From positions 1 through 54,548 of the forward strand of contig CALVCB010000004.1 of NCBI GenBank assembly GCA_944325965.1: 54,548 bases of DNA, given 5' to 3'. The stretch comes from an uncultured Bacteroidales bacterium (GTDB taxonomy: Bacteria; Bacteroidota; Bacteroidia; Bacteroidales; UBA932). A program made the position numbers and the translations under genes. Positions 19,755 to 38,952 of this stretch are shown here, piece by piece. Under the pieces are notes generated by a model. The model searched no databases. It was given only the letters and a program-made list of their open reading frames with translations, and was not told the origin of the DNA. Position 1 is the first letter of the stretch, and each line of letters opens with the position of its first letter.

Positions 19755-19756
19755 GT

Positions 19757-24600: not shown

Positions 24601-25162
24601 ATATGATGAGAGGCTTCCCGCTGAACAGTATCCTTCCGAGTACCATTCTGGGCATCCTTGTGCCTGCGGTGTCGCTCTCCTCCGGTCCGGATGACTTGAG
24701 AATGTTCCAGTTGGCGTTTCCGTTGTCATAACTTCTGGCGAAAATCCTCGGCTTATCGAGCGTCAGTGACGGTATCCTTATCTGGCCTATGGTCAGTGCT
24801 GCGATATTGAGCGAAGCGGAAAACCTGTCGAATGACATGAGGGTGTCAGCCCCGTCACCCCGCCCTGCGACACGGCTGATGCCTATGCATTTTTCTATGT
24901 CAATGAACTTTTCTGACGGGTATGAGACCGAGACGGTGTCGAAACTTACGTTCAGGTTCGGGAAACTTTTGAATACGGACATCGAGACCTTTCCGAACGA
25001 AACATCCGCGTCAATGTATTTTTCCGCGAAATTCCTTGCGAATCTGGTCAGCACTGCCGGAGACAGCACCACCTGTATGACTATGAGGACCGCCGCCCAT
25101 ATTGCGGCTATCCAGACCAGGACCTTTAGCAATGTCCTTTTTTTTCCGGCATGTTTGTCCAT
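21608..25162 (-). CDS. AsmA-family protein
   Basis: This 1184-residue protein has one N-terminal transmembrane helix (about residues 12-33) and a long beta-rich periplasmic part. The AsmA N-terminal motif covers about residues 34-90 (DADVSFGKVSMSVFKSFPNL), and an AsmA-like C-terminal region with FDINISDVTAERVIELVPAV and IPSINGVIRIGG lies at about 960-1110. The tail (1140-1184) is charged and helical. AsmA/TamB/YhdP proteins are bridge-like lipid carriers between inner and outer membrane; the length allows a groove across the periplasm. A short linker at about 840-880 contains an acidic DEDYQE stretch. It is transcribed alone. Confidence 0.85.
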   Translation of the reverse strand: MDKHAGKKRTLLKVLVWIAAIWAAVLIVIQVVLSPAVLTRFARNFAEKYIDADVSFGKVSMSVFKSFPNLNVSFDTVSVSYPSEKFIDIEKCIGISRVAGRGDGADTLMSFDRFSASLNIAALTIGQIRIPSLTLDKPRIFARSYDNGNANWNILKSSGPEESDTAGTRMPRMVLGRILFSGKPLIIYTSVQDTADIIMNMRKMQFNGKVRSDGKDSRRISLDVDSMFIAGRFPEDTLALALDKFRIGMSRGRMYAGAEATTLLATRTYGRLRIPVVFSTGIEMRKDTVPGISLCKFKAEIAGIPLQASADMKFYGTDSIYVKAGAAIEKCKVSNVLKYLNKEIFRDADQIQTDAAVTLTASCDGWYSQRSGSLPSITAAFQIPRSDLKHKKFGTSNTLQLDAGLQGGGGTPFTLTVNDFSVSGKALEINAQGKVDDMLGEDPLIGIDADMAVKLDTLKGLIKKGSGIDAGGSLAAEIKGSIKLSQLDPYRFADADVAGFIKSDRLDLNIEEDSLSMHIDSLDIVLGALGNTRDSSIAQGERMLVLASRLDSLRLRYKDEMFVNGRNLSLKAQNAAAILDSADSSKFYPFGGRLEIGFLALAGADTSVVLVSGSDNTFTISPKKENPDVPVLALKSKTEGVFLRNSVNRLGLGGLQLDATAAMNSIERRQKAKAFVDSLAKKYPDVPRDSLFHHLRKIRGPHKVEIPDWLSEKDFRKNDIQFSMDSSIVKIFLEWDADGMLALRRANLITPYFPLHNSIRDIKGRFNNNEIDLESFNLSSGHSGLSAKGRLKGIRGLIAGRGFLNLDMDITSDSLNINELLGAYTVGSAFVPKDMPEITGAEDLMETDDEDYQETFVTDTLADATDMKTSLIVVPANVIAQIRLDASNVRMSDLTLDRMQSMLTVKERCVQFMNTSAKSEIGNIDFEGFYSTRTKQDLRTGFDINISDVTAERVIELVPAVDSLMPMLKSFKGQLDCQMAATADIDTTMNIVIPSINGVIRIGGSDLTLSESEAFTQIARKLKFKDRESGHIDNMSVEGMIKDNVLEIFPFVLKVDRYTMAMSGIQNLDMSFRYHISVLDSPIPFRVGIDLYGDSFDDFKFKIGKAKYKSTNIPVFSTVIDQTRLNLKESIEKIFTMGVEKAVQENRRQSAIEEYKKDIDYKEAADAKLDSLSAEEKARLEAQE

Positions 25163-25498
25163 GACACCTATTTATTTATATCAGACAAAAAAACACAACA
25201 GATTTTCAAAAATACGAAAAATAAGGTTCGGTTGTCTTTATGTTCCGGAATAATATGTCGTATTTCGAAATGAAACTCGATAGGCTCTGTTAACATATTG
25301 CGACTTCGAAAATTGTAAAAATATCAGATATTTATTTCGGTCTCCCCAAAATATTCATATATTTGCTTTCAAAATGAAAATGTAACAATTTTTTAACATT
25401 TTTTGAAAATTATAAAAACCTTGTCGACATACTTTTACAGAGCGATATCATAATGAATGAACCCTATTTTCGTGTGCCGTTACTCTAAAAACTTATAT
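25163..25498. promoter_or_regulatory. AT-rich divergent control region between asmA-like gene and the phosphoesterase locus
   Basis: The 336-base spacer contains no recognisable gene. For the minus-strand AsmA gene, TATTTTTG lies at 25207-25214. For the plus strand, TATATTTG at 25358-25365 is the best -7 box, with TTTC at 25335-25338 exactly 19 bases upstream (one mismatch to TTTG). This would give a leader of about 130 bases, rich in A and T, before ATG 25499. No ECF sigma, anti-sigma or hybrid two-component gene is adjacent. Confidence 0.55.
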
Positions 25499-27430
25499 AT
25501 GAATATTTTCAAGAGAATAATCCTGTTTTGTACTGTTGCTGCTGCCATTATGGCCTGCGGAAAGAACGGTCTTGATGAAGAACTGAACGTCGTGCTCAAT
25601 ATTCCTGAAACCCTATTGGTCGATTCAGGCGACATGGAAGTCTCATTCCGTATTGTGGGCGGGAATCCGCCTCTTGCCTCCGATAAGATCGAGTTCACCG
25701 GGACGTCGGGCACTGTGGCATGCGGCATATCCTCGATAACGGACAGATATGTCTATGTGGTCTTGCCGGATGGTTTTAAGAACGGCGAATACGAGGTGTA
25801 TGTATCAAGAGGTTCCCAGAGGAAACTGCTGGGGGAGACCTCGATTTTCATAAATGATGCAGGATCCGGTATGGAAATAGAGGAGGGCACTACTGTATAC
25901 GGTTTCGTGACCTGTGACGGGGAAGGGGTGCCTGATGTGGTGGTGTCGGACGGCATGGAGGTCGTGACTACTGATGAGAACGGTTTTTACCAGATAGCGT
26001 CGGAAAAGAAGAACAAGACGGTTTTTGTTTCGGTGCCTTCCGGATATGAGCCTGAGACGGAAGGAATAGTACCGAAATTCTATGGCGTGCTTTCTGGTGA
26101 TGCCAACAATTTGGAGCAGATGTCCTTCAGACTGACGAAATCAGATGTAACCGACTATGTCCTTTTGGTATTCGGGGACATGCACCTTGCCAACAGGCCG
26201 AACACAAGTGATGCGGTCCAGTTCCGCAGATTCACCGATGATGTCAATGAATATATGTCCGCCAATTCAGGTAAGAAAATATATGCCCTTACACTTGGTG
26301 ATATGACATGGGATCTGTACTGGACAGACTATGGTTATGATATCCTGAAATATATAGAGTACATGAATTCTCTGCTCGAGCACAACCTGACAGTCTATCA
26401 CACAATAGGCAATCATGACCACCATGAGACTGCTGTCGGAGATTTCCTGAAGACATCTGACTACAGGAACAATCTTGGACCTACATACTATTCGTTCAAC
26501 ATAGGCGAATATCACTATGTGGTACTTGATGATATAGATTTTATGGACAATATTGCCGACAGGGACAACTATGTGGAGGATGTCGCTTCTGACCAGCTCG
26601 AATGGTTGGCCAGGGACCTTGCCGCCGTACCTGAAGATACCCCTGTCATTCTTGCAATGCACGCCCCTGTCTATAATGATAATTCACTGACACCGGGCAC
26701 AAGGCTCAAAAATGCCTCTGAACTGCTTTCCATACTGGAAGGACGTAAAGTCCATATATTTACAGGCCACACCCACAGGTCTATGACCGTTGACAAACTC
26801 GGGGCAGCCTCTTCGGGTCACTTTGAGCATAATGCCGGTGCTGTATGTGCGGACTGGTGGTGGTCATATCAGGAATCCGGCATATTGGTTTCTACTGACG
26901 GTGCTCCTGGTGGATACTCCATCGTCGACGTTTCGGGAAAAGATATCAGATGGCGTTACAAGCCTACGGACTTCAGTGAAAAACTCCAGTTCAGGACATA
27001 CGACCTCAATAATGTGAAAATTACCTATGAGGATTATGTGCCGAACGCAACAGAAAGTTATAAATCTGATTTTCAAAAGTATGTGTCAGCATATCCTGGC
27101 AGCTCGGCCAATGAGGTCCTGCTTAACATCTGGAACTGGGATCAGGATTGGAAACTGTCTGTTACCGAGAATGATAAGACGCTAGAACCGGTCAGAGTCG
27201 TAGCTTATGACCCGCTGCACATAATAGCCTATACGGCCAAGCGGCTGAACAAGAATGCGAATGCGACTTTCGCGACATCGCGGAGCAACCACTTTTTCAA
27301 GGTAAAGGCGTCTTCTCCGACGTCTACCCTTGAAATTACGGTGACAGACCGTTTCGGGAATACCTACAAGGAAACGATGCAGAGGCCGAAAAATTTCACC
27401 ATAGAAACCTACAAGAACGAATCGGACTGA
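25499..27430 (+). CDS. Calcineurin-like phosphoesterase lipoprotein with N- and C-terminal accessory domains
   Basis: This 643-residue lipoprotein (AAAIMAC, Cys 20) is likely outer-membrane attached. An Ig/IPT-like domain covers about residues 28-120, and a carboxypeptidase-regulatory/MetallophosN-type domain about 128-205 (TVYGFVTCDGEGVPDVVVSD). The metallophosphoesterase core spans about 215-470 with a full metal site: GDMH near 225, LGDM near 264, GNHDHH near 303, AMHAPV near 387, and TGHTHRS near 421. A MetallophosC-type domain forms the rest. It is the first gene of the SusCD locus, 45 bases before susC. Substrate is unknown; phosphomonoester or diester hydrolysis is expected from the fold. 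The ATG at 25499 supplies the signal peptide. Confidence 0.88.
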   Translation: MNIFKRIILFCTVAAAIMACGKNGLDEELNVVLNIPETLLVDSGDMEVSFRIVGGNPPLASDKIEFTGTSGTVACGISSITDRYVYVVLPDGFKNGEYEVYVSRGSQRKLLGETSIFINDAGSGMEIEEGTTVYGFVTCDGEGVPDVVVSDGMEVVTTDENGFYQIASEKKNKTVFVSVPSGYEPETEGIVPKFYGVLSGDANNLEQMSFRLTKSDVTDYVLLVFGDMHLANRPNTSDAVQFRRFTDDVNEYMSANSGKKIYALTLGDMTWDLYWTDYGYDILKYIEYMNSLLEHNLTVYHTIGNHDHHETAVGDFLKTSDYRNNLGPTYYSFNIGEYHYVVLDDIDFMDNIADRDNYVEDVASDQLEWLARDLAAVPEDTPVILAMHAPVYNDNSLTPGTRLKNASELLSILEGRKVHIFTGHTHRSMTVDKLGAASSGHFEHNAGAVCADWWWSYQESGILVSTDGAPGGYSIVDVSGKDIRWRYKPTDFSEKLQFRTYDLNNVKITYEDYVPNATESYKSDFQKYVSAYPGSSANEVLLNIWNWDQDWKLSVTENDKTLEPVRVVAYDPLHIIAYTAKRLNKNANATFATSRSNHFFKVKASSPTSTLEITVTDRFGNTYKETMQRPKNFTIETYKNESD

Positions 27431-27475
27431 AGAAAATCCATATTCTGTAACAACTACTAACTAAATATTTATTTT

Positions 27476-30400
27476 ATGAGAATATTGAAAAAATTTGCTG
27501 TTATCCTGTTGGGGGGGGCATTGAGTATAGTCTCTCTGGCTGCCCAGAACAGAACGGTGTCAGGAACAGTTCTTGACTCCAGCCAACAGCCGGTTATCGG
27601 TGCCGCCGTAATGTTGCAGGGAACAACGGTAGGCAATACCACCGATGTGGACGGTAAATTCTCTCTCGACGTACCGGACGGGGACGCCTTGCTTCTGGTC
27701 TCCTGCCTCGGCTATGTAGAGCAGAATGTCAATGTCCCTGCAAACACCAATTCAGTCACCGTTATCCTTCAGGAAGACAACCTTATGCTTGAGGAAACGG
27801 TCGTGGTAGGTTACGGTGTCCAGAAAAAGGTCAACCTGACAGGTTCGATTTCAGTCGTGGGCAGTGAGGACCTCGAGAACCGCATCAACCATTCCGTGAC
27901 CAACATGCTCCAGGGTGCCGCCGCCGGTGTGAATGTGACCACATCTTCCGGAAAGCCAGGGTCGTCAGGCTCCATTAATATCCGAGGCGTCAATTCCATC
28001 AATTCTGCGGATCCTCTGGTCGTTATCGACGGTGTGGCCGGTGACTCCGGTGACCTCAACAGGCTTAATCCTAATGATGTGGCGTCCATCTCCATCGTCA
28101 AGGATGCCTCTGCCGCTGCAATCTACGGAGCCCGTGCTGCATTCGGTGTGATCCTTGTCACTACCAAGTCCGGAACCGACAGGGACGGCAAGGCCACCGT
28201 ACGGTACAGCGGGCGTTTCGGCTGGGAGGAGCCTACTACTTCTACCGACTATGAAAACCGTGGCTACTGGTCTGTGTACACGGTCAACAAATTCTGGCAG
28301 GCCGACAGCGGTACTAATTATATCAATTATACAGATGAAGACATGTACCAGCTTCTGGCCCGTGTGAACGACAAGACCGAGGACCCGAGCCGTCCGTGGA
28401 CGATGGAGGTCATCAGGAACGGAAGAAGGCAGTGGGTGTATTACGGAAACTATGACTGGTGGGACATGCTGTACAGGAAGAGACGCCCTACGCAGTCACA
28501 CGACATCTCCATCAGCGGAGGCAACAAGGATATAAAATACCTCATTTCCGGCAACTACAATAACCAGCAGGGTATGATTCGTGAAAATCCTGATGTGTTC
28601 AACAGGTACAACCTTCGCGCAAAGATAGATTTCAACATCAACAAATGGGCTAAATTTTCAAACAACTCTTCATTCTTCAGCTCAAAGTACACTTCACTTG
28701 GAAACGGCAGCATTGACGATACCATAGCATACAGCGCACGCCATGCCCTTGCATGTTTCCCTATGCAGAATCCTGACGGGTCCTGGCTCTACAGTACGCC
28801 TTACATCAATTACAAGGTGGCGAACGGAAGGCACATACTGATAAATGAAGGTACTCACCGTAATGTAGAACATGTCAGTGACTTCTCCAATACGTCACGT
28901 CTTGTGATAACCCCGGTAAAGACTTTCAACATTACGGCAGACTTCACGTACAGGTTCTATCAGTCCCGTAATACACACAGGTCTTCGCCTATGTGGTACA
29001 GGGAATATCCAGATTCCGAACTGCAGTCGTATAATACAGGTGCTGGACTCAACAAGCTATCTGAAAGCACATCCACCCGTCATTTCTATTCGACAAACAT
29101 CTATGCGTCCTATGACGAGACATTCGGGGATGCTCACCATGTGTCCGCGACTGCCGGAGGAAACTACGAGAAATTCTCCCGCAAGGGAATCTCTGTAGCT
29201 GCTCAGGACCTTTCATCGATAGATCTGGATGACCTTGATCTTGCTACTACCGTTGCCGAGGAAGGTGCATACGGCGGAGGACAGGCTGAATACGCGCTTC
29301 TCGGCTTCTTTGCCCGTATCAATTACGACTATAAGGGAAAATATCTGTTTGAGGTCAGCGGACGCTATGACGGTACATCCCGTTTTGCCGCAGACAGCAG
29401 GTGGGGACTGTTCCCTTCCGCTTCGGCAGGATGGCGTATTTCCGAGGAGCCGTTCTTCGAGCCTGCCAAAAAAGTGATAGACAACCTCAAGCTGCGTGCT
29501 TCCTTCGGCTCTCTCGGTAACCAGAGCGTATCTTCATACTATACTTTTGCGAGATTTGTGAGCAATCATGATTTCGCTTCGTTCACTTTTGACGGGAACG
29601 GTGTAGGAAGGTATTCTTCTCTGGATGATCCTGTCGCCGGAAACCTTACCTGGGAGAAAGTGAACCAGTGGGATCTCGGTCTTGACGTGGACATGTTCAA
29701 CAACCGTCTCAATATTACGGTAGACGGCTATATCCGTGACACCAAGGACATGCTGACAGACGGAGTAGAGCTTCCTGCCGTTTATGGGGCCGCTCCTCCA
29801 AAAATGAACACAGCCGACCTGCGTACTTCAGGATATGAGATCACTGTGAACTGGAGAGACGAGTTCATGGCTGCCGGAAAGCCTTTCAGATACAATATCG
29901 GTTTCAATCTCAGCGATTACAAGAGTATAATAACAAGGTACGACAACAAGGATAAGACCTTTGCCAAAAAATACTATGAAGGCATGGAGATAGGCGAAAT
30001 TTGGGGATTCCGTACTGACGGCTTCTTTGCCACTGACGAGGAGGCTGCCGCCTATGCGCAGCAAGTTGATTTGAGTTACAGTTCTGGACGTCTTACCGGA
30101 GGCTGGAAGGCAGGAGACTTGAAGTTTCTTGATCTCAATGGAAATAAAAAATGGGATATCGGACAGAATACTGTAGATAATCCGGGTGACATGGTGAAAC
30201 TCGGGAACTCTAATCCGACGTTGTCTTATGGTATAAATGCCGGGTTTGACTGGATGGGATTCGATTTTTCCATTTTCCTGCAGGGTACCGGAAACCACTA
30301 TTGGTATCCAAGCGGACATAACATGAATTTCTGGGGGGCGTATTCATATTCATACGTGTCATTCCTTCCGAAGAATTTCATCGACAAGGTATGGGACGAG

Positions 30401-30757
30401 AACAATACCGATTCGTATTTCCCTCGTGCGCGTGCATATTCCGCAACGGGAGGCTATCTCTCCAAGGTCAACGACAGGTATCTCCAGAATCTGCGCTATT
30501 TGCGTCTGAAAAACCTGACTTTCGGATACACTGTTCCGGAGAGATTGACAAGGAAGATACATATAGATAAGATCCGAGTGTATTTCTCTGGGGAAAACCT
30601 GTGCTACTGGTCTCCTCTGAAAAAGAATACGCTGTATGTGGATCCTGAGGCGGCATTCACCCGTACGGATTCCAGCGGTAAAGTTGATGATGCCAAGAAC
30701 AACGCATTCTATCCTTGGCCAAAGACATTTATGTTCGGAATAGACATAACTTTCTAA
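27476..30757 (+). CDS. SusC/RagA-family TonB-linked outer membrane transporter
   Basis: This 1093-residue TonB-dependent porin has a signal peptide at about residues 1-23 and a carboxypeptidase-D-like N-terminal extension at about 25-100 (VSGTVLDSSQQPVIGAAVML). A TonB-box region EETVVVGYGVQKK lies near 110. The plug domain spans about 118-225, with IRGVNSINSADPLVVIDG and VKDASAAAIYGARAAFGVI. The barrel ends with the aromatic FMFGIDITF. It imports a ligand handed over by the SusD partner encoded 13 bases downstream. The neighbouring enzymes are phosphoesterases and not glycosidases, so the ligand is probably phosphorylated; this is inferred from context. Confidence 0.95.
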   Translation: MRILKKFAVILLGGALSIVSLAAQNRTVSGTVLDSSQQPVIGAAVMLQGTTVGNTTDVDGKFSLDVPDGDALLLVSCLGYVEQNVNVPANTNSVTVILQEDNLMLEETVVVGYGVQKKVNLTGSISVVGSEDLENRINHSVTNMLQGAAAGVNVTTSSGKPGSSGSINIRGVNSINSADPLVVIDGVAGDSGDLNRLNPNDVASISIVKDASAAAIYGARAAFGVILVTTKSGTDRDGKATVRYSGRFGWEEPTTSTDYENRGYWSVYTVNKFWQADSGTNYINYTDEDMYQLLARVNDKTEDPSRPWTMEVIRNGRRQWVYYGNYDWWDMLYRKRRPTQSHDISISGGNKDIKYLISGNYNNQQGMIRENPDVFNRYNLRAKIDFNINKWAKFSNNSSFFSSKYTSLGNGSIDDTIAYSARHALACFPMQNPDGSWLYSTPYINYKVANGRHILINEGTHRNVEHVSDFSNTSRLVITPVKTFNITADFTYRFYQSRNTHRSSPMWYREYPDSELQSYNTGAGLNKLSESTSTRHFYSTNIYASYDETFGDAHHVSATAGGNYEKFSRKGISVAAQDLSSIDLDDLDLATTVAEEGAYGGGQAEYALLGFFARINYDYKGKYLFEVSGRYDGTSRFAADSRWGLFPSASAGWRISEEPFFEPAKKVIDNLKLRASFGSLGNQSVSSYYTFARFVSNHDFASFTFDGNGVGRYSSLDDPVAGNLTWEKVNQWDLGLDVDMFNNRLNITVDGYIRDTKDMLTDGVELPAVYGAAPPKMNTADLRTSGYEITVNWRDEFMAAGKPFRYNIGFNLSDYKSIITRYDNKDKTFAKKYYEGMEIGEIWGFRTDGFFATDEEAAAYAQQVDLSYSSGRLTGGWKAGDLKFLDLNGNKKWDIGQNTVDNPGDMVKLGNSNPTLSYGINAGFDWMGFDFSIFLQGTGNHYWYPSGHNMNFWGAYSYSYVSFLPKNFIDKVWDENNTDSYFPRARAYSATGGYLSKVNDRYLQNLRYLRLKNLTFGYTVPERLTRKIHIDKIRVYFSGENLCYWSPLKKNTLYVDPEAAFTRTDSSGKVDDAKNNAFYPWPKTFMFGIDITF

Positions 30758-30770
30758 AAATCCGGTATCG

Positions 30771-32591
30771 ATGAAAAGATTAATATTACCAACTATAATA
30801 ATGGCTGCGGGTCTGGCTGCATCATGCAACATCCTGGATCTTGAGCCCGAAGACAAGGTGTCCTTAGATGACTACTTTAAGACAGAGAGCGATCTGGAGT
30901 TGTTCTCCAATCCTTTCTATAACAACCTGTTGGACAAAGCTCCTTTTGATGACCAGAGCGATGTGCTCGTAGAGCTTATCCTCGATGAAATAATGGAGGG
31001 GGGAAACCGTCGTACTCCACCGGCCTCAGATGACAACTGGTCATGGAAGGATTTAAGGCGTGCTAACACTTTGATTGAGTATGCAGACAACTGTGATGAC
31101 AAGGAGGCAGTCGCGCACTATACTGCGGTGGCACGTTTTTTCCGTGCATACTTTTATTTTCAAAAAGTAGTGCGTTTCGGGGATGTCCCGTGGTATGACG
31201 TGCAGCTGTATTCCGATGATGCGGCCCTTTACAAGCCACGTGACTCCCGGGAGCTTGTCATGAGCAAGATGCTCGAGGATATAGACTATGCCATAGACAA
31301 CCTTCCGAGCGCGGTAAGCACATATCATGTCAACCGCTGGTCGGCACTGGCCTTCAAATCGCGTTTCTGTCTTTTCGAGGGGACATACCGCAAATACCAT
31401 AACCTGCAGCTTGAAGGTGATCACACGTACGAGGACTATCTTAAGCTTGCAGCAGATGCCGCGTATGAAATCATGACGAGCGGGCCGTACAAACTGCACG
31501 ATACAGGGAACCCGGAGGAGGATTATCTGACACTGTTTTCCCAGAGTGAGGCCGATGTGGACGAGTATATCTTGGCTATCAACTTCGACTATGCCGGAGG
31601 TGCGCGCCACAATGCTTCTGCATATATGGTGAATCCGGGACAAGCCAGTCCGGGGCTGACAAGAAAGTTCATCAACACATATCTTATGAAGAACGGCGAT
31701 CGGTTTACTAAGGTCAATCCGGATTATGCGACTATGCAGTTCAAGGAGGAGACTGCGGACCGTGATCCTCGTCTTGCCCAGAGTATCCGTACTCCAGGCT
31801 ACACGCGCATAGGGCAGAGTGAGGTACTTGCTCCTGATTTCGGAGCCTCCTCTACCGGTTACCAGCCTGTCAAGTTCGTCCAGGATCCTACGGCAAACAG
31901 CGGTAACAACGACCGTACAGGCTCTTCAGACTGCGATCTTCCTGTATTCCGCTATGCAGAAGTGCTTCTCAACTACGCGGAAGCGAAAGCGGAACTCGGT
32001 ACTTTGACTCAGGACGATCTGGATATCTCCATAAATCTTCTCCGTGACAGGGCAGGAATCACATCGGGTCTTGACTTGGTTGCCGCAAATGCCAATCCTG
32101 ATCCGTACCTGATGTGGAAGGACGGGGTAGATAACAAGGATCAGACCGGATATCCTGGCGTTTCAGGGAATAATACGGGAGTGATCCTCGAGATCCGCCG
32201 CGAACGTACCATCGAGCTTCTTATGGAAGGTTTCCGTTTCTATGATCTGTGCAGATGGAAGGCGGGGGCATGTATCGACGAACCTATTTACGGGATGTAT
32301 TTCCCTGGGGCTGGCGAATATGACCTGACCGGAGACGGCAAGACCGATCTGGTACTTGTCGCCAAAGGGGCGACAAAGCCTAACATGCCGGAAGGCGTAA
32401 CTGTTTATGAATTGGACAGCGACATTTACCTGACCGGGGGCACAAGCGGCTATATTAACCGGCACTACAATGCAACGCGCAACGGGTTCAATGAAGAAAG
32501 GGATTATCTCTATCCTATTCCTATCAACGAGCGTTCCCTCAATCCGCAGCTGACCCAGAACCCTGGATGGAACGATGGACTTGATTTCTGA
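30771..32591 (+). CDS. SusD/RagB-family nutrient-binding lipoprotein
   Basis: This 606-residue surface lipoprotein (GLAASC, Cys 19) forms the lid of the SusC channel. The N-terminal LDLEPEDKVSLDDYFKTESD is typical of SusD starts. TPR-like helices carry AVARFFRAYFYFQKVVRFGD at about residues 120-140. The C-terminal RagB/SusD region contains ILEIRRERTIELLMEGFRFY near 475 and ends LNPQLTQNPGW. The ligand is not predictable from sequence. It is co-transcribed with susC and with the BACON lipoprotein gene that begins about 35 bases downstream. Confidence 0.95.
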   Translation: MKRLILPTIIMAAGLAASCNILDLEPEDKVSLDDYFKTESDLELFSNPFYNNLLDKAPFDDQSDVLVELILDEIMEGGNRRTPPASDDNWSWKDLRRANTLIEYADNCDDKEAVAHYTAVARFFRAYFYFQKVVRFGDVPWYDVQLYSDDAALYKPRDSRELVMSKMLEDIDYAIDNLPSAVSTYHVNRWSALAFKSRFCLFEGTYRKYHNLQLEGDHTYEDYLKLAADAAYEIMTSGPYKLHDTGNPEEDYLTLFSQSEADVDEYILAINFDYAGGARHNASAYMVNPGQASPGLTRKFINTYLMKNGDRFTKVNPDYATMQFKEETADRDPRLAQSIRTPGYTRIGQSEVLAPDFGASSTGYQPVKFVQDPTANSGNNDRTGSSDCDLPVFRYAEVLLNYAEAKAELGTLTQDDLDISINLLRDRAGITSGLDLVAANANPDPYLMWKDGVDNKDQTGYPGVSGNNTGVILEIRRERTIELLMEGFRFYDLCRWKAGACIDEPIYGMYFPGAGEYDLTGDGKTDLVLVAKGATKPNMPEGVTVYELDSDIYLTGGTSGYINRHYNATRNGFNEERDYLYPIPINERSLNPQLTQNPGWNDGLDF

Positions 32592-32626
32592 TAAGCCTTT
32601 TAATGGAAAAACTTAATAATGGAAAT

Positions 32627-35600
32627 ATGAAATATTTTAACAACATATTTGGATATTGTGCCGCTGTCATGGCTGTATGCGCTGTATTCGGATGCAAGCA
32701 GGAAGAGCTTTTCGAGCCCGATTCCCTGTTGTCCGCACAGAGTATCACTTTTGAAGCGGAAGCGGCAGAGGCCCAGTCTCTTACAATAGCCTCCAATGGC
32801 AGTTGGATGATTGATGTGGTGGAAGACTGGATCACTGTAACCCCGATGTCCGGTACCGGCTCTACTGATGTCTCGGTTACAGTTACGGATAACGTTGATG
32901 AAAAAGGTGTCGTGAACGGTCCTCGTGAAGGGAAAATCACCATTTACAGTGACCGCGGTTCCGAAGTAAGCACCACTGTCATCCAGAAGGGGGATAACTA
33001 CAAAGGTGTGGAGGAAATAACGATAGACAAAGTTTATGGACTTGATGATGAAACTTTGCTAAAAATAGCCAAAGCTCAGGTTACGGCTGTGACGGGAACC
33101 GGGTTTGTCGCTTCGGATGGAACGGGTGTCATTTATGTTTCATCCGAAGAAAATGTGACGTTAGGATCTGAAGTGTCTTTTGCCGGTAGAAAAAGCAGTC
33201 TGTACGGTATCGCTTCAATCGAATCCGACCAGTTCTCCGTTATATCCGAGGCGGGAAGTGAGATAACATATCCGGAAGCTGAAGATTTCCTCTCTCTGGA
33301 CTATGCTGAAATCATGACAACGACGTATGTCACAGCCACAGGCGACCTTCTTGACGAAACGCTTTTCTTTGATCCGTCGATTCCGTATGATGTGAAAATC
33401 CTTGCTCCGGAATCAGATGAGATCAGCCTGGAGGAGATCAACAAGCATAATATAGAATTCGAGGCTTATTTCCTCGGCTTGAAGGATGGAGTGTTAACAT
33501 TGGTTCTAACCAAGATTCTCAATGATAATGGACAGAGCATAAATGACAGTAATCTTGACGGTTTCCCTGTTCAGTGGACTATCGGTATAGGAAATACGGC
33601 TGACAAGATCAACTTTACGGAAACTTTTCCTCAGTCAGGCTATATAGATGCAGTAGAGGGGGGTGGACGTATTACCTATGTATCTCTTGATTCCAAACAA
33701 GACCCTGATAACAAATTTACGCGAGTTGTCGGGAGTGGAGGCGACCCTTATGTTACAGGAGCTTGGCCTGGTGACTATTGGGAATTCAAATCAGACTCTC
33801 CTGTATCGGCAGGTACAATTTTGAGAATTTCATTCGAAGCAGCAACCAGTGCAACCGGACATAAGTTCTGGAGGTTGGAATACCGTGACGGAGAAGAGTG
33901 GATAGTTCCGTCGTCTCTTAAGAAGGAAACCAATGAACCCGGAGAGACAATAGTATATACCCACGTGATGAAGCCATCATCTTCGGATCCTGTACAGGTA
34001 GCTGCTACAGTGAAATACAATAATACAACGGATGCAGCGCATTTCCGTCTTGTATGTGCAGCAAATTGGCAGAGCAGTGGAGCAGGTGCGCTTAAGGCTC
34101 CTAACGGAGGAACCATGCGTCTTACTCTGTCCGACAATACTTCAACGGACTGGCAGCCCTGCATAAAATGTGTGGCTGCAGGGTCTGCGGATCTTACTCC
34201 AGCGGTAATCAATGTTACAGGACTGGAAGACGGGATACTTACATTTGAAGGCACTCCTGCAGAGCCGAAGACGATAACTGTTACATCGGATGCGGATTTC
34301 AATGTATCCACAACTTCATCATGGCTGCACATCGAGAACGGTGAAGGTGCCAAGAACGAAGTTAAAGATGTTAAAATAACCTGTGACCCGAGCACTTTAT
34401 CAGTAATGCGAAAAGGTCAGATTGTAGTCCGGTCTGCGATAAGCACTTACAATATAGTTGTCGTGCAGAGTGCTGCAGGTGGCGAGCTGGATCCTTTGAT
34501 TTCACTTTCCCGCAACAATATCACTGTCCTCGGAGAGGGTGAGACATTCGATGCATCCGTCCAGGCGAACATTGAATATGAAGTGGAGATCCTGGATGAC
34601 TGGATCAGTGAAGAGCCATCCTTATCAACAAGGGCCGTTGTTGAAAAATACGAACATTCATTTACGGCAGATCCGAATATGACAGGATCCGAAAGGACCG
34701 GAAAAATCCGTTTCTACAACGACGAGTACGGAATCGAGACCATACTCAATGTGAAACAGGGGAATTTCGTGCCGAGGGTGACTGTATCTACCGGCCGCAT
34801 CATTCCTGTTATCGGAGGTAATGGCGCGACAGTGGAATTCAATGTAGATGCAAATATCTCCTATACGGTTTCTGCTGACAGCTGGATTCATCTTCCAGCG
34901 AGCAGCGGTGAAGCAGGAGAATATCAGATACCTGTAACTTTCGATGCCAATTCATCTTCTTCCGAACGTACTGGTACAGTAAAATTCATCAACGATACGT
35001 ATGGGTATGAAATGTCGCTTACCATTAGACAGTATCCTTCCGGAGTAGTTTTCTCTGAAGATTTTGAATGGCTTGAACCTTGGTCATTGGCTGGAGACAA
35101 TAAAGGTAAGCCTGCCGGACAGACAGTTGAAACTGATGATTTGGATGCTTACTGCCCACAGTTGCCTACACCGAAAGTTGACGGAGCCTCTGCATTGGAT
35201 GCCCTTGAGGCGAAGGGTTATGAGATGTTGAGAGTATGTGCTCCAGATAAAAACGAAGGCGAGTGTATATATCTCCAGAGAAATTACCTGAAATTCGGCA
35301 AGACTGGTTATCAAGGAGGAATTGTTCTTCCTGCGATAACAGGAGGCTCTGGCCTGAAGCTTTCATTCGACTGGTGTCCGATGAGACAGGGATCTGGAAA
35401 ATTGGATCCTGTCAACCTGATAGTGGAAGTCACGAACGGAAGCGATGTGAAGACTTTTGAAGTCGAGACTCACGGTTGGGAAAACGGTCATAAGCTGGAA
35501 TGGATACCGGCTTCAATCGAATTGTCAGGTGTTACTGTAGACGAGAATACCAGAATTGCTATCAAGCAGAAAGAGTGGGGAGTCAGTACAGCCAACAGGT

Positions 35601-35638
35601 GGTTCCTTGATAATATCAAGATAGTTTCTGCGGAATAG
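32627..35638 (+). CDS. Multi-BACON surface lipoprotein
   Basis: This is a lipoprotein of about 1003 residues (Cys 23, followed by KQEELFEPD, close to the surface-export signal). ATG 32627 gives a compact signal peptide; ATG 32603 in the same frame is also possible. A first BACON domain covers about residues 38-125 (SITFEAEAAEAQSLTIASNG). An OB-fold-like segment follows at about 130-215 (AVTGTGFVASDGTGVIYV), then a jelly-roll-like region near 335-520. Three further BACON domains lie at about 525-620, 625-715 and 717-810. The C-terminal 190 residues (EDFEWLEPWSL onward) look like a galactose-binding-type module. It has no catalytic motif and is probably the surface glycan or ligand-binding protein of the SusCD locus. 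Confidence 0.85.
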   Translation: MKYFNNIFGYCAAVMAVCAVFGCKQEELFEPDSLLSAQSITFEAEAAEAQSLTIASNGSWMIDVVEDWITVTPMSGTGSTDVSVTVTDNVDEKGVVNGPREGKITIYSDRGSEVSTTVIQKGDNYKGVEEITIDKVYGLDDETLLKIAKAQVTAVTGTGFVASDGTGVIYVSSEENVTLGSEVSFAGRKSSLYGIASIESDQFSVISEAGSEITYPEAEDFLSLDYAEIMTTTYVTATGDLLDETLFFDPSIPYDVKILAPESDEISLEEINKHNIEFEAYFLGLKDGVLTLVLTKILNDNGQSINDSNLDGFPVQWTIGIGNTADKINFTETFPQSGYIDAVEGGGRITYVSLDSKQDPDNKFTRVVGSGGDPYVTGAWPGDYWEFKSDSPVSAGTILRISFEAATSATGHKFWRLEYRDGEEWIVPSSLKKETNEPGETIVYTHVMKPSSSDPVQVAATVKYNNTTDAAHFRLVCAANWQSSGAGALKAPNGGTMRLTLSDNTSTDWQPCIKCVAAGSADLTPAVINVTGLEDGILTFEGTPAEPKTITVTSDADFNVSTTSSWLHIENGEGAKNEVKDVKITCDPSTLSVMRKGQIVVRSAISTYNIVVVQSAAGGELDPLISLSRNNITVLGEGETFDASVQANIEYEVEILDDWISEEPSLSTRAVVEKYEHSFTADPNMTGSERTGKIRFYNDEYGIETILNVKQGNFVPRVTVSTGRIIPVIGGNGATVEFNVDANISYTVSADSWIHLPASSGEAGEYQIPVTFDANSSSSERTGTVKFINDTYGYEMSLTIRQYPSGVVFSEDFEWLEPWSLAGDNKGKPAGQTVETDDLDAYCPQLPTPKVDGASALDALEAKGYEMLRVCAPDKNEGECIYLQRNYLKFGKTGYQGGIVLPAITGGSGLKLSFDWCPMRQGSGKLDPVNLIVEVTNGSDVKTFEVETHGWENGHKLEWIPASIELSGVTVDENTRIAIKQKEWGVSTANRWFLDNIKIVSAE

Positions 35639-35660
35639 CCACTGATATGTGTTTGTTGAT

Positions 35661-35690
35661 AGAGCCGGTGTATGCCGGCTCTTTTTATTT
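35661..35690 (+). terminator. Terminator of the phosphoesterase-susCD-BACON transcript
   Basis: AGAGCCGG (35661-35668) pairs with CCGGCTCT (35675-35682) over a 6-base loop, followed by TTTTATTT. Confidence 0.9.
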
Positions 35691-35803
35691 AGTTAGAATG
35701 GTTCTTTTAGCCTCCGCCTGAAATGACAAAGGGGTGGGATGCTGATGTAATAATTTAAAAAAAAGAAATTTTATAAAGATTCGTAAAAAAACATTAAAAA
35801 ACG

Positions 35804-35850
35804 GAAAAACCTGCATTCAGGAGCCTACAGGGCCTTGGATGCAGGTTTTC
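35804..35850. repeat. Long-arm hairpin upstream of the Rpn remnant
   Basis: GAAAAACCTGCATTCA (35804-35819) is nearly complementary to TGGATGCAGGTTTTC (35836-35850). The right arm lies where the -33 region of the following promoter should be. It could be a terminator of the unit to the left or a border of the Rpn cassette. Confidence 0.5.
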
Positions 35851-35858
35851 CTTTGCTT

Positions 35859-35866
35859 TATATTTG
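35859..35866 (+). promoter_or_regulatory. -7 box for the Rpn remnant
   Basis: TATATTTG matches TAnnTTTG, 18 bases before the ATG at 35884. TTGG at 35835-35838 is a weak -33 candidate and overlaps the hairpin. Confidence 0.45.
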
Positions 35867-35883
35867 CCGCCAAAAATGACATT

Positions 35884-36458
35884 ATGATTGAGGAAAGATT
35901 GATTGGCGGCGGGGACTTGATAGTCCAGAGGTATGTTGACATTTTGACGGATGCAGGATTCAAGGCGGTGTTCGGGGACCAGAGGAACAAGGATGTGCTT
36001 AATACACCTTCCGGGAAAAGAGGACGCATGAGGTACCAGATGAGACAATTTCGCTTATCTTTGCTGAACTGGACCGATTCGACAAGTCTTTGGCACAGTG
36101 CGAGAGCCTACAGGAGAAATGGTGCTATTCGCTGAAGCATGTGAGGAAGCTGAACGAACTTCCGGATGGTTTGAGGGTCAGGACGTTCGAGAGGCTGTTT
36201 GAGGCGTGCGAGATAGCTCGGTTCAGTCCGGAGAAGAAACTACAATACGAGAGTGACATGATAACGGAACGGGACTACTACAATATTCTTGAGACCGCCA
36301 AGGAGGACGGCGAGGCCAGGGGACGCGAAGCTGGTCTTATGGAAGGAGAGGCTAAAGGTATCGGAAAAGTGGCGAAGGCTATGTTGGCATCGGGAATGCC
36401 TGTAGAGCAGATTGCGTCATTGACAGGACTTTCTGCTGAAGAAATAGGAAACTTGTAG
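35884..36458 (+). pseudogene. Rpn-family (PD-(D/E)XK) nuclease/putative transposase, internally deleted and frameshifted
   Basis: The first 40 residues (YVDILTDAGFKAVFGDQRN onward) match the start of Rpn/PDDEXK_2-family proteins. From about 36003 the reading frame changes. The new frame reads YTFREKRTHEVPDETISLIF and continues to 36458 with the family's C-terminal part (FSPEKKLQYESDMITERDYY, then a Gly/Glu/Lys-rich helix and VEQIASLTGLSAEEIGNL). The central nuclease core with its catalytic Asp/Glu/Lys, probably well over 100 codons, is missing. The junction lies at about 35998-36003. The C-terminal frame is open and could start at TTG 36090, but no ribosome site supports this. Confidence 0.8.
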
Positions 36459-36473
36459 GCGGAATTTATTGAG

Positions 36474-36516
36474 TACCGGAAAGTTCGGCGTAGGCCGGGC
36501 TTTCCGGTAATTTGTA
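36474..36516 (+). terminator. Hairpin terminator after the Rpn remnant
   Basis: TACCGGAAAG (36474-36483) pairs with CTTTCCGGTA (36500-36509), and inside it CGGC pairs with GCCG. A T-rich ATTTGTATTTT follows. It separates the remnant from the fused phosphoesterase gene. Confidence 0.75.
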
Positions 36517-36617
36517 TTTTGAAAGAAAAACCATTGGATTGACTTTCGTTTCGAAAATAATTTGTAAATTGCACTTGATTTGATGGAACGGATTATTCTA
36601 TTAAAATTCAAGTCTAT

Positions 36618-38852
36618 ATGAAAAAAATTCTTATTGCGGCTTTGGCCGTGCTTGCAGGAGGCATCATGCTTCAGGCAAGGGAAGTGACAGGTTCCGTAAA
36701 GTGCGGGAAGGAGCAGCTTTCCGGGGTCATTGTCTCCGACGGCAGAAGCTTCACTCTCACCGGGAAGAACGGAAAATTCAAGATGGACATAGCGGATGAT
36801 GCAGATTTCGTCTATGTAGTCACTCCGGCTGGCTATACGGCACCTTTCGAAAGCGGGGCCCCTGTGTTCTACCAGTCTGCAGAAGGGAGGAAGAAATTCG
36901 ATTTCCAGCTCGTCAGGACATCGGATTCCAAAGATTATGATATAGTTGCCATTGCGGACCCTCAGACACTGCATGAAAAGCATTTCGCCAAGTTCGAGAA
37001 GACAGGGCTTCCTGACCTGTATGCCACAGTCGAGGACTGCAAGAAGGAGCACCTGACAGTGGGCATTACCCTGGGCGACATCTGCTGGGATTCGATGAAC
37101 ATGTATCCAGCCTATAAAGAGGCTATAGCAAAGACCGGGATACCGTTTTACACTGCTATCGGCAACCATGACCACCAGAAGGACCTGCAGGGAGACCATA
37201 ACACTTCTTCCGCCTACAGGGCTGCTTTCGGCCCTGAAAACTATGCTTTCGGCATAGGCAATGATTATATGATCGTATTGGACAATATCATTTACGATAC
37301 CCAGAAAAAATATGTCGAGGGCTATGCCGACAGTGTGCTGGCCTGGGTAAAAGGACTTCTGGAATATATTCCGGAAACCTCGCATATCTTCATCGCCCAG
37401 CATGCCCCGTTCATCTACTGGTTCAAGGACTATTCATACGCCAGGAACGGAGAGAAACTTCTGGATATGCTGGAGGGCAGACAGGTGACTTTTCTTTCAG
37501 GACATACCCATATCAACAATAATTTCGATATTGCCACTGGCATCAAAGAATGCAACGTTGCCGCCATCTGCGGCACATGGTGGATTGCCGACCACTGCAA
37601 TGACGGGACTCCCGGCGGATACAAGGTGTTCGAGATGCGGGACGGAAAACTGTCATGGTACTACAAGTCCGTCGGCCATGACAAGGATTTCCAGGTGGAG
37701 ATTTTCAAACCGGGGCAGTCGCAGCTCCATCCGAACGGTGTAATTGCCAATGTATGGGACTATGACCCGTCCTGGACCGTGGAGTGGTATCAGGACGGCA
37801 GGCCGATGGGAAAAATGGAGCAGGTACTGGATTATTCTCCTATATTTATCCGTGAACTGAATGCGGTCTACAAGGACAGGGGCAAGGAGACCCCGGGTTA
37901 CAAACAGCCGAGGCCGAACATCCACTATTTCCTTGCCGAGCCTGACCAGTATGCGAAGACAGTGACCGTATGCGTCAGGGCCGGAGACGGACGTGAGTGG
38001 AAATATGATATAGATATGAAAAACTATGTCGATGTGCAGGCTCACCGCGGAGGCGCAGGCCTGATGCCCGAGAATACCGTATCCTCAATGAAGAACGCCC
38101 TTGACCTGGGTGTAAATACTCTGGAGCTGGACCTGCAGATCAGTGCTGACGGCCAGATAGTCGTTTCCCATGATGCCTACTTCCACTCAAGGTATGCCAC
38201 AAGGCCGGACGGTTCTGCCGTGCAGCCGGATGACCCGAAGGAGTACATCTATACTATGCCTTATGATTCAGTGGCAAAATATGATACCGGCATCAGGGAG
38301 AGTTCTGTATGGCCTGGGAAAGCCTGTCTTCCGGAGCATAAGCCTCTGGCTGATGACCTTATAGATTTTACTGAGTCTTATGCGAAGGAGCATGGCCTGA
38401 CGATGCCGCGGTACAACATCGAGATAAAGTCCAAGGCCGGAAAGGCCGAGGGAAAGGACTGGCCGGAGTACCACGATTTCGTAGACCGCTGCGTAGAGCT
38501 GCTTCTCTCTAAGAATCTCGGGGACAGGCTTGTCATCCAGTGCTTCGACGTAAGGGCATTGAACTACATGCATGAGAAATACCCGCAGCTCATCCTTTCG
38601 TATCTGGTAGGGGAGAAGGACAAGGACTTCGATGCTTACATGTCCCTGCTGGACTTCACTCCGCAGTGGCTCAGCCCTCACTATTCCAATACGGACGCCG
38701 ACCTGTGCCGCAAGGTCTGGGACAAGGGAATGAAGATCGTTCCTTGGACGGCCGATGAGCCGGAGGATATCCGGCGTCTGGTGGATCTGAAGGTTGATGC
38801 CATTATATCCAACTATCCTGACAGGGTTCTCAGGATTACACGTGGGTACTGA
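36618..38852 (+). CDS. Secreted metallophosphoesterase-GDPD fusion (two phosphoesterase domains)
   Basis: This 744-residue protein has a cleavable signal peptide (about residues 1-21, no lipobox). A MetallophosN-type domain covers about 22-100. The calcineurin-like core spans about 110-340, with IADPQT near 114 (Gln where His is usual, as in this subfamily), TLGDICWD near 153, GNHDHQ near 185, QHAPF near 259 and SGHTHI near 295. A MetallophosC-type linker follows. From about residue 470 a glycerophosphodiester phosphodiesterase barrel begins: AHRGG near 475, PENT near 485, ELDLQIS near 503, SHDAYF near 517, IEIKSK, and a C-terminal SNYPDRV. The parts suggest release of glycerol-3-phosphate from a phosphodiester followed by dephosphorylation. 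The order is inferred. Confidence 0.9.
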   Translation: MKKILIAALAVLAGGIMLQAREVTGSVKCGKEQLSGVIVSDGRSFTLTGKNGKFKMDIADDADFVYVVTPAGYTAPFESGAPVFYQSAEGRKKFDFQLVRTSDSKDYDIVAIADPQTLHEKHFAKFEKTGLPDLYATVEDCKKEHLTVGITLGDICWDSMNMYPAYKEAIAKTGIPFYTAIGNHDHQKDLQGDHNTSSAYRAAFGPENYAFGIGNDYMIVLDNIIYDTQKKYVEGYADSVLAWVKGLLEYIPETSHIFIAQHAPFIYWFKDYSYARNGEKLLDMLEGRQVTFLSGHTHINNNFDIATGIKECNVAAICGTWWIADHCNDGTPGGYKVFEMRDGKLSWYYKSVGHDKDFQVEIFKPGQSQLHPNGVIANVWDYDPSWTVEWYQDGRPMGKMEQVLDYSPIFIRELNAVYKDRGKETPGYKQPRPNIHYFLAEPDQYAKTVTVCVRAGDGREWKYDIDMKNYVDVQAHRGGAGLMPENTVSSMKNALDLGVNTLELDLQISADGQIVVSHDAYFHSRYATRPDGSAVQPDDPKEYIYTMPYDSVAKYDTGIRESSVWPGKACLPEHKPLADDLIDFTESYAKEHGLTMPRYNIEIKSKAGKAEGKDWPEYHDFVDRCVELLLSKNLGDRLVIQCFDVRALNYMHEKYPQLILSYLVGEKDKDFDAYMSLLDFTPQWLSPHYSNTDADLCRKVWDKGMKIVPWTADEPEDIRRLVDLKVDAIISNYPDRVLRITRGY

Positions 38853-38871
38853 CATACATAGTACAACATAG

Positions 38872-38935
38872 AATTTTCCCGGACAGGGACGGAATGTATA
38901 CAGGCATTCACGTACCGCTGTCCGGGGAAATTTTT
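38872..38935. terminator. Bidirectional hairpin between GDPD-fusion gene and rluD
   Basis: AATTTTCCCGGACAG (38872-38886) pairs with CTGTCCGGGGAAATT (38918-38932) with one mismatch. An inner GAATG/CATTC pair extends it. A-rich and T-rich flanks serve both convergent genes. Confidence 0.8.
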
Positions 38936-38952
38936 CAGGCCTGATGGGGCCG

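What the first reader, a model, noticed from the sequence alone, without database searches (positions are those of the whole stretch)
25335..38935. A SusCD locus whose enzymes are phosphoesterases, not glycosidases
A metallophosphoesterase lipoprotein, SusC, SusD and a multi-BACON surface lipoprotein form one transcript (25499-35638). A secreted metallophosphoesterase-GDPD fusion follows at 36618-38852. No glycoside hydrolase, polysaccharide lyase, sulfatase or peptidase gene is included. Known: SusCD complexes import large ligands, and I recall phosphate-linked SusCD systems in Flavobacteriia. Inference: this locus captures a phosphodiester compound (glycerophosphodiesters, phospholipid head groups or a glycerol-phosphate polymer such as teichoic acid) and strips its phosphate. 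It could be a phosphorus- or lipid-derived nutrient system distinct from polysaccharide loci.
Basis: partly seen in the sequence, partly recalled or inferred. Interest (0 to 1): 0.78.

Follow-up and report, generated by a model that had tools for sequence, protein, structure and literature searches.

The report
SusCD locus for glycerol-phosphate diesters
A gut bacterium carries an outer-membrane importer of the kind normally used for complex sugars, but built around phosphate-ester enzymes; many relatives keep this importer next to glycerol-3-phosphate uptake and burning genes, so it most likely feeds on glycerol-phosphate compounds such as lipid head groups or Gram-positive wall polymers.

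Summary
In detail: metallophosphoesterase (MPE) lipoprotein, SusC, SusD, BACON lipoprotein (25499-35638), then a secreted MPE-GDPD fusion (36618-38852); no glycosidase, lyase, sulfatase or peptidase domain in the six ORFs scanned. A terminator and a decayed transposase, absent in the nearest relative, separate fusion gene and operon. Of 80 related loci, 62 keep MPE-SusC-SusD-BACON and 35 have glycerol-3-phosphate (G3P) genes (GlpT-family, GlpABC/GlpD, GlpK, GlpF) within 10 kb, against 1 of 39 control SusD loci. GlpT-family antiporters are the commonest of the 108 nearest neighbours (23). The window SusD falls in the same clade; its genome has GlpABC, GlpK and, beside a second SusCD-MPE locus, GlpT. 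Best reading: SusCD imports glycerophosphodiesters, periplasmic enzymes release G3P, GlpT and GlpABC use it. Against: no G3P gene beside the window copy; 8 of 20 sampled genomes lack a strong GlpT. Ligand (small diesters or teichoic-acid-like polymers) and activities are untested. Nearest known: Flavobacterium PusCD loci, which already pair SusCD with phosphodiesterases and organophosphate transporters.

The parts
25335..25365 (+). Bacteroidota-type promoter candidate: TTTCG (25335-25339), 18 nt, TATATTTG (25358-25365)
   Evidence: Both elements invariant in 5 of 5 aligned orthologous upstream regions; the TAnnTTTG consensus is recalled
25367..25379 (.). Inverted repeat TTTCA-AAA-TGAAA just after the promoter; possible operator
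   Evidence: Conserved in the alignment; the 20-nt pattern around it occurs only here in the window, allowing 3 mismatches; a 19-nt form is found exactly in 4 of 140 loci: L002 (the window's own sequence), L009, L010, L012
25499..27430 (+). MPE1: predicted outer-membrane lipoprotein, calcineurin-like phosphoesterase with MetallophosN and MetallophosC
   Evidence: PF16371/PF00149/PF16370 over cut-offs; seven expected metal-ligand residues invariant in 39 of 39 aligned sequences; calcineurin-like fold in the model
27476..30757 (+). SusC-family TonB-dependent transporter
   Evidence: TIGR04056 897.7 bits, cut-off 368
30771..32591 (+). SusD-family surface ligand-binding lipoprotein
   Evidence: PF07980 169 bits, cut-off 23; lies in a 71-row clade of MPE-linked SusDs, support 98
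32603..35638 (+). Multi-BACON lipoprotein with choice-of-anchor-J-like C-terminus (signal ends FGC-KQEEL)
   Evidence: BACON in 4 stretches; choice_anch_J 27.6 bits against cut-off 30; homologue in 72 of 80 MPE loci and 0 of 39 controls
35661..35682 (+). Intrinsic-terminator-like hairpin ending the operon
   Evidence: 9-pair stem and T tail
35884..36458 (+). Decayed Rpn / PD-(D/E)XK transposase gene between operon and fusion gene
   Evidence: PF12784 31.8 bits over cut-off 27.4 on its 3' part; 322-aa copy at the same site in L011; absent in L141
36618..38852 (+). Exported MPE-GDPD fusion (signal peptide read from sequence, no lipobox)
   Evidence: PF16371/PF00149/PF16370 and PF03009 113 bits; GDPD motifs HR, ENT, ExD, H aligned with 3ch0; 744-aa orthologue next to the cassette in L141

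Best explanation
The locus is a SusCD uptake system for glycerol-phosphate diesters. SusD and the BACON lipoprotein hold the ligand at the cell surface, SusC carries it through the outer membrane with TonB energy, and MPE1 (outer-membrane lipoprotein) and the exported MPE-GDPD enzyme cut its phosphodiester bonds, releasing sn-glycerol-3-phosphate. G3P then crosses the inner membrane by a GlpT-type antiporter and is oxidised by GlpABC, giving carbon and phosphorus together. Shown: gene content and order, intact catalytic motifs, recurrent linkage to GDPD and G3P genes in relatives beyond a control, SusD clade membership, and presence of GlpABC, GlpK and a GlpT-like gene in the same genome. Inferred: ligand, enzyme activity and direction of flow, that SusCD import precedes the final cut, and that what holds for linked relatives holds for the window copy.
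For: G3P genes within the fetched flanks (up to 10 kb) of 35 of 80 MPE loci against 1 of 39 control SusD loci; GDPD or G3P genes 43 of 80 against 2 of 39 (Fisher p about 1e-6 and 6e-8, loci not independent). GlpA, GlpB, GlpC, GlpK and one of four GlpT-family proteins score over NCBIfam cut-offs. A GlpT-family gene is directly upstream on the same strand within 400 bp in 12 of 76 loci that have an upstream gene, GDPD in 6, MPE-GDPD in 2. Among the 108 nearest of 537 neighbour genes 23 match the glpT model and 7 match GDPD. Runs such as GlpA-GlpB-GlpC-antiporter-GDPD-MPE-SusC-SusD-BACON (L041) and GlpD-GlpT-GDPD-MPE-SusC-SusD-BACON (L055; L059, L060 and L066 with one more gene). In 20 systematically chosen genomes, 8 of 12 strong GlpT genes (over 400 bits) lie within 10 kb of an MPE1 homologue, against 0 of 26 weaker family members. 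The window SusD falls in a 29-row subclade (support 99) with L041, L081, L073 and L055-L066; 10 of its 29 loci, the window and L008 among them through GDPD alone, have GDPD or G3P genes. G3P linkage needs 15 label changes by parsimony, at least 11 forced by well-supported branches, so it is not one inherited block. The window genome has GlpABC, GlpK and a GlpT-like gene about 4 kb from the MPE gene of its second SusC-SusD-MPE locus.
Against: No G3P gene lies beside the window copy itself, only GDPD; 19 of 29 loci of its subclade have neither within the sequence held (some are cut by contig ends). Of 20 sampled genomes with the cassette 8 have no strong GlpT gene and 4 of these no GlpT-family hit at E 1e-60, so GlpT import is not universal. 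Three of four antiporters tested are below the strict glpT cut-off, and for L041 the broader PgtP-type model scores best. A few loci have glycosidases or sulfatase-family genes beside the cassette. The MPE fold match (Lmo2642, purple acid phosphatases, 5'-nucleotidases) does not separate monoesterase from diesterase. No expression or activity data.
Confidence: 0.68

Rival explanations
1. Phosphate-scavenging system: the diester (lipid head groups, nucleotides or other) is hydrolysed outside the inner membrane to inorganic phosphate, under phosphate starvation, as proposed for PusCD loci of Flavobacterium.
For: PusCD loci pair SusCD with phosphoesterases and are induced on Pi depletion (PMC8115612, one section and passages read). 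MPE folds match phosphatases. Some relatives add PHP, HAD or, further off, alkaline phosphatase genes. 8 of 20 genomes lack a strong GlpT.
Against: GlpT-family antiporters as the commonest neighbours, with G3P oxidation genes, would make little sense if G3P were dephosphorylated outside. No pst family is among the 25 of 82 families shown for the nearest neighbours; pst genes were not searched for otherwise.
Confidence: 0.17
2. A glycan-utilisation locus whose ligand carries phosphodiester decorations; glycosidases encoded elsewhere do the main work and the phosphoesterases only trim.
For: GH31 beside two relatives, GH89, GH123, GH127 beside one each; a rhamnosidase in the operon of the paralogous SusC-SusD-MPE locus L088; SusD and BACON families are usually linked to glycans.
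Against: No glycosidase in the window locus; in the 25 of 82 families shown for the 108 nearest neighbours glycosidase families appear once or twice each, against 23 GlpT-family and 7 GDPD.
Confidence: 0.12
3. The linkage is a by-product of shared chromosomal position among related species, with no functional tie.
For: Some neighbours (dnaJ, grpE, uvrA) recur, most simply through synteny.
Against: GlpT-family genes occur upstream, downstream and divergent, the label changes many times on the tree, and 38 of 39 control SusD loci lack G3P genes.
Confidence: 0.03

Closest known systems
PusCD loci (PUSI, PUSII and others) of Flavobacterium, PMC8115612
   Same: SusCD next to phosphoesterases instead of CAZymes; the text says all six PusCD forms are co-localised with phosphomono- and diesterases, phosphonate enzymes and inner-membrane organophosphate transporters; PhoA1 of PUSII carries pf13653, a GDPD-type domain; lipid head groups and nucleic acids are named as likely ligands of PUSI
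   Different: PUSI enzymes are PF00149 and PF16670 type (Table 1 passage); no mention of MetallophosN/C proteins, of glpT or of glycerol in the main text (0 occurrences of glpt, metallophosph, glycerol). The present family is tied to G3P transport and oxidation, is seen in mostly gut Bacteroidales records, and its Pi response is unknown. Which transporters the paper means was not seen (figure not held)
Bacillus subtilis GlpQ and PhoD teichoic-acid degradation (PMC7086022, PMC6232261, passages read)
   Same: A GDPD-family exo-phosphodiesterase and an endo-acting phosphodiesterase release glycerol-phosphate from polyglycerol-phosphate; glpT next to glpQ in B. subtilis is recalled
   Different: Gram-positive, no outer membrane or SusCD; no PhoD-family model was among the Pfam matches of the window enzymes
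Classical SusCD polysaccharide utilisation loci
   Same: SusC, SusD and BACON lipoprotein in one operon
   Different: Phosphoesterases in place of glycosidases or lyases
GDPD (GlpQ/UgpQ), GlpT and GlpABC glycerophosphodiester catabolism of E. coli (recalled)
   Same: GDPD, GlpT and GlpABC complete the same pathway
   Different: There the substrate crosses the outer membrane by porins (recalled); here a dedicated SusCD is present
Bacteroides thetaiotaomicron BT4724-BT4725 (SusCD) with BT4727 (GDPD), PMC10434189
   Same: SusCD close to a GDPD gene in a model gut species
   Different: Only table rows and one passage of an iron-response study were seen; whether it is the same SusD family was not tested

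Membership tests
SusCD outer-membrane import locus | Adjacent SusC (TIGR04056) and SusD (PF07980) on one strand | tested here: met
Polysaccharide utilisation locus | CAZyme gene in the locus | tested here: not met
   No such domain in the six scanned ORFs
PusCD phosphate utilisation system | SusCD with phosphomono- or diesterase genes and no CAZyme | tested here: met
PusCD phosphate utilisation system | Induced by phosphate depletion | not testable with these tools
   no expression data
PusCD phosphate utilisation system | SusD in a Flavobacterium PusD clade (the paper calls PusD polyphyletic) | not tested
   Flavobacterium sequences were not fetched
GDPD (PF03009) | Profile score over cut-off and catalytic His/metal motifs | tested here: met
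   113.4 bits, cut-off 23.6; HR, ENT, ExD, H aligned to 3ch0
Calcineurin-like MetallophosN/C proteins | PF16371-PF00149-PF16370 with intact metal ligands | tested here: met
Glycerophosphodiester catabolic cluster (GlpT, GlpABC/GlpD, GDPD) | G3P genes adjacent in the window | tested here: not met
   Only GDPD is adjacent; GlpABC, GlpK and GlpT-like genes lie on other contigs of the genome
Glycerophosphodiester catabolic cluster (GlpT, GlpABC/GlpD, GDPD) | G3P genes near loci with the same SusD clade | tested here: met
   7 of 29 loci of the subclade have G3P genes, 35 of 80 overall
PhoD teichoicase | PhoD-family profile match | tested here: not met
   not among Pfam matches of the window enzymes

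The most novel reading that the evidence does not exclude
The cassette is a teichoic-acid utilisation locus: gut Bacteroidota import fragments of Gram-positive glycerol-phosphate polymers by a dedicated SusCD, de-glycosylate or de-esterify them with accessory GH31, GH89 or SGNH enzymes seen in some loci, unzip the chain with MPE and GDPD, and burn the G3P. It would make the walls of neighbouring Firmicutes a recognised food of Bacteroidota.
Probability: 0.22. Interest if true: 0.87.

Novelty: new variant of a known kind. Interest (0 to 1): 0.62.

Why it matters
SusCD systems are usually read as sugar importers, and many SusCD pairs of gut Bacteroidota have no known ligand (general knowledge). 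This family offers a specific, testable non-glycan ligand class with a full catabolic route, in records named Cryptobacteroides, Muribaculum, Alistipes, Bacteroides, Proteiniphilum and Maribellus among others. If right, glycerophosphodiesters from diet, host membranes or bacterial walls are a dedicated carbon and phosphorus source in the gut, and loci now filed as orphan PULs could be reassigned.

Tried and rejected
MPE1 against solved structures gave nothing at E 0.001; the family profile gave weak purple acid phosphatase and acid-sphingomyelinase-like hits. The MPE1 model (pLDDT 87.3) matched calcineurin-like enzymes broadly and could not tell mono- from diesterase. The BACON lipoprotein model (pLDDT 81.6, pTM 0.47) gave mainly repeat-protein and Ig-like matches of low TM-score among the 50 shown, uninformative for ligand. 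SusD and SusC matched solved homologues, none with a phosphoester ligand named in the listing. No Rfam family at gathering score in 25000-39500. The operator-like pattern was not found elsewhere in the window, so not before the fusion gene.

Considered and dropped: nucleotide uptake (apart from PD-(D/E)XK transposases no nuclease or nucleoside family in the 25 of 82 families shown for neighbours; a 5'-nucleotidase-like gene does lie near GlpABC in the window genome, L139); phytate (no phytase domain in the window genes); head-group catabolism for choline, ethanolamine or inositol (none recognised in the clusters printed or the shown part; not searched systematically).

Rows dropped before counts and limits of the sets: the 80 loci are the best 80 of 155 relatives found. 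Control L119 was removed because it holds an MPE gene, leaving 39 of 40. Control places were picked by me from the PF07980 lists for contig length, not drawn at random: 16 from the window genome, the rest from five genomes of its genus and one of its order, so they are not matched genome by genome to the targets; some searches were made for that reason. In the MPE1 alignment L024 and L037 (a stop in the chosen range) and L087 were left out, 39 sequences used. In the neighbour scan 108 of 537 candidates were scanned, those between cassette-type genes or at most 297 bp outside them; MPE-labelled genes were left out, so MPE-GDPD fusions are not counted there. In the 20-locus same-genus set at least 13 repeat loci already held; 3 of the other 7 have GDPD or G3P genes, and over all 20 it is 6 G3P, 6 GDPD, 10 either. 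It was not used as an independent test. The SusD tree is a quick one with many long control branches.

Paper searches (open-licence PMC; listings and starts of abstracts seen) listed no paper that I recognised as describing this locus; that is not proof that none exists.

Full report
What is there. The window lies in a 2.06 Mb, 78% complete genome whose nearest record found is Candidatus Cryptobacteroides avicola (MPE1 83% identical). Four genes with gaps of 45, 13 and 11 bp encode a metallophosphoesterase lipoprotein (MPE1), SusC, SusD and a multi-BACON lipoprotein. A terminator-like hairpin follows at 35661-35682. About 1 kb on, an exported MPE-GDPD fusion starts at 36618. The spacer holds a decayed PD-(D/E)XK transposase, present at full length (322 aa) at the same site in L011 and absent from the nearest relative (L141), where a 744-aa fusion gene starts about 0.2 kb after the BACON gene. 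The sequence just before the fusion gene is conserved in L141, which suggests its own promoter.

Enzyme integrity. In MPE1 the residues expected to bind metals (D227, H229, D268, N305, H388, H424, H426; the assignment from the calcineurin motif is recalled) are invariant in 39 of 39 aligned sequences. The GDPD half aligns end to end with 3ch0 and keeps HR, ENT, ExD and H. The MPE1 model is confident (pLDDT 87.3) and calcineurin-like, but the fold does not say whether it is a mono- or a diesterase. Signal sequences, read directly, suggest that MPE1, SusD and the BACON protein are lipoproteins and the fusion a soluble exported protein.

Related loci. One scan with MPE1 gave 155 relatives, of which the best 80 loci were kept; the records are Bacteroidota, mostly Bacteroidales. 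MPE1-SusC-SusD-BACON stands in that order on one strand in 62 of 80 (several of the rest are cut by contig ends). Homologues at E 1e-60 occur in 56 of 121 sampled genomes of the window's genus. The most frequent neighbour cluster was a 460-aa major facilitator, in 30 of 86 sequences compared (the 80 loci, five from the window genome and the window). Of four members tested, three match glpT best (448, 499 and 718 bits, the last over the cut-off of 632), and the fourth (L041) matches the broader PgtP-type model best (300 bits) and glpT next (275). Further neighbours are GlpA, GlpB, GlpC, GlpK and a MIP channel, all over a cut-off, a GlpD-like dehydrogenase below its cut-off, and DeoR-type regulators. 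Clear arrays: L041 GlpA-GlpB-GlpC-antiporter-GDPD-MPE-SusC-SusD-BACON; L085 GlpA-GlpB-GlpC-GlpT-MPE-SusC-SusD-BACON; L055 GlpD-GlpT-GDPD-MPE-SusC-SusD-BACON, and L059, L060, L066 the same with one more gene, which clusters with HAD hydrolases; L073 DeoR, GlpD, GlpT, two other genes, the cassette, then GlpF-GlpK on the other strand.

Control. Forty SusD places of the window genome (16), five genomes of its genus and one of its order were fetched; one held an MPE gene and was dropped. G3P genes: 35 of 80 targets, 1 of 39 controls. GDPD or G3P genes: 43 of 80, 2 of 39. BACON-lipoprotein homologue: 72 of 80, 0 of 39 (Fisher values, with the warning that loci are related). A second test took every fourth locus, 20 genomes: 12 strong GlpT genes (over 400 bits, in 12 genomes), 8 of them within 10 kb of an MPE1 homologue (one of the eight, G125, near a 39%-identical paralogue), and 26 weaker family members, none within 10 kb (nearest about 12.8 kb; read off the two tables). 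A third, of the 108 nearest of 537 neighbour genes, found 23 that match the glpT model, 7 GDPD, 4 SGNH esterases, 3 sulfatase-family, 3 PHP; glycosidase families appear once or twice each among the 25 of 82 families shown.

Tree. 71 SusD rows from MPE loci (window and L119 included) form one clade (support 98) with no control SusD inside; the window SusD sits in a 29-row subclade (support 99) with L041, L081, L073 and L055-L066. Within the subclade 10 of 29 loci have GDPD or G3P genes (the window and L008 through GDPD only), 7 of 29 G3P genes. Of four SusDs near other MPE genes of the window genome, two (L088, L090) fall just outside the clade and two (L089, L091) far outside, so MetallophosN/C enzymes seem to have joined several SusCD families. 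On a tree of 70 rows, G3P linkage changes 15 times by parsimony, at least 11 forced by well-supported branches; GDPD linkage 13 and 10.

Same genome. GlpA, GlpB, GlpC in a row (L139) and GlpK with a MIP-like channel (L140) are present. The best GlpT match (499 bits) lies about 4 kb from the MPE gene of a second SusC-SusD-MPE locus on contig C10 that also has an alpha-L-rhamnosidase gene in the operon (L088). A GDPD lipoprotein and another organophosphate antiporter (PgtP-type model best) are neighbours on contig C3 (L137). So the whole proposed route can be written from this genome, though not from one operon.

Mechanism. GlpT imports G3P in exchange for phosphate, and GlpABC or GlpD oxidise it (established knowledge). 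A GDPD enzyme makes G3P from glycerophosphodiesters, and GlpQ does so stepwise from unsubstituted wall teichoic acid (PMC7086022, passages read). Placed behind a SusCD pair, this predicts uptake of a diester too large or too scarce for porins. The MPE half may cut internal or substituted bonds, as PhoD does in B. subtilis; that is analogy, not homology (no PhoD match). In L084 a free MPE gene stands between BACON and the antiporter gene, easier to reconcile with a diesterase that yields G3P than with a phosphatase that destroys it.

What speaks against it. The window copy has only GDPD beside it. Of 20 sampled genomes with the cassette 8 lack a strong GlpT and 4 of these any GlpT-family hit at E 1e-60. 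Some loci have GH31 (two), GH89, GH123, GH127 or sulfatase-family genes next to the cassette, so the ligand may be glycosylated. No activity or expression is known.

Comparison with the known. The closest published systems are the PusCD loci of Flavobacterium, induced by phosphate depletion (PMC8115612, section 16 and passages read). They already pair SusCD with phosphodiesterases and, by the text, inner-membrane organophosphate transporters, and one enzyme, PhoA1, carries the GDPD-type domain pf13653. The present family shares that principle and differs in its MetallophosN/C enzymes, in its tie to G3P oxidation genes and in its mostly gut Bacteroidales hosts. Ten paper searches in the open-licence library listed no description that I recognised. 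B. thetaiotaomicron BT4724-25 and BT4727 (SusCD, GDPD; table rows in PMC10434189) may offer a model, but orthology was not tested.

Verdict. A real, conserved SusCD family, most likely for glycerol-phosphate diesters; a new variant of a known kind. Confidence 0.68 in the glycerophosphodiester-to-G3P reading; the bolder teichoic-acid reading is open at about 0.22.

Noticed in passing
35884-36458 (window); L011:20357-21322: Rpn-type PD-(D/E)XK transposase inserted between operon and MPE-GDPD gene; full length in L011, internally deleted in the window, absent in L141.
   Followed up: yes
25335-25379: Conserved Bacteroidota-type promoter followed by inverted repeat TTTCA-AAA-TGAAA, a possible operator; no regulator gene was recognised next to the operon.
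   Followed up: partly
L088:931-13327 (window genome contig C10): Second SusC-SusD-MPE operon with an alpha-L-rhamnosidase gene, a purple-acid-phosphatase-like gene and the genome's best GlpT match: possibly a polymer of rhamnose and glycerol-phosphate as ligand.
   Followed up: partly
L089, L090, L091, L092 (window genome contigs C49, C53, C17, C11): Further MetallophosN proteins lie near SusC or SusD genes; the three SusDs tested fall in different places of the SusD tree, so this enzyme family seems to have been recruited to SusCD loci more than once.
   Followed up: partly
L013, L048, L051, L058, L080: The SusD position seems to be taken by SusD-like_2 (PF12771/PF12741) proteins: the scan counts five such members among the neighbours, and these five fit by place and sequence (not scanned one by one).
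   Followed up: no
20933-21586: A PhoU_div (DUF47) gene stands upstream without a Pit phosphate transporter beside it (usual pairing recalled); its place is kept in L008, L010, L011, L012.
   Followed up: no
18459-20764: Two adjacent lipoprotein-like genes, the first matching Mfa2/FimA-type fimbrial families, the second no family; conserved in place in L010, L011, L012.
   Followed up: no
PMC10434189 table rows; BT4724-25 and BT4727: B. thetaiotaomicron SusCD next to a GDPD gene appears among genes lowered in an iron experiment; may be a model member of this family.
   Followed up: no
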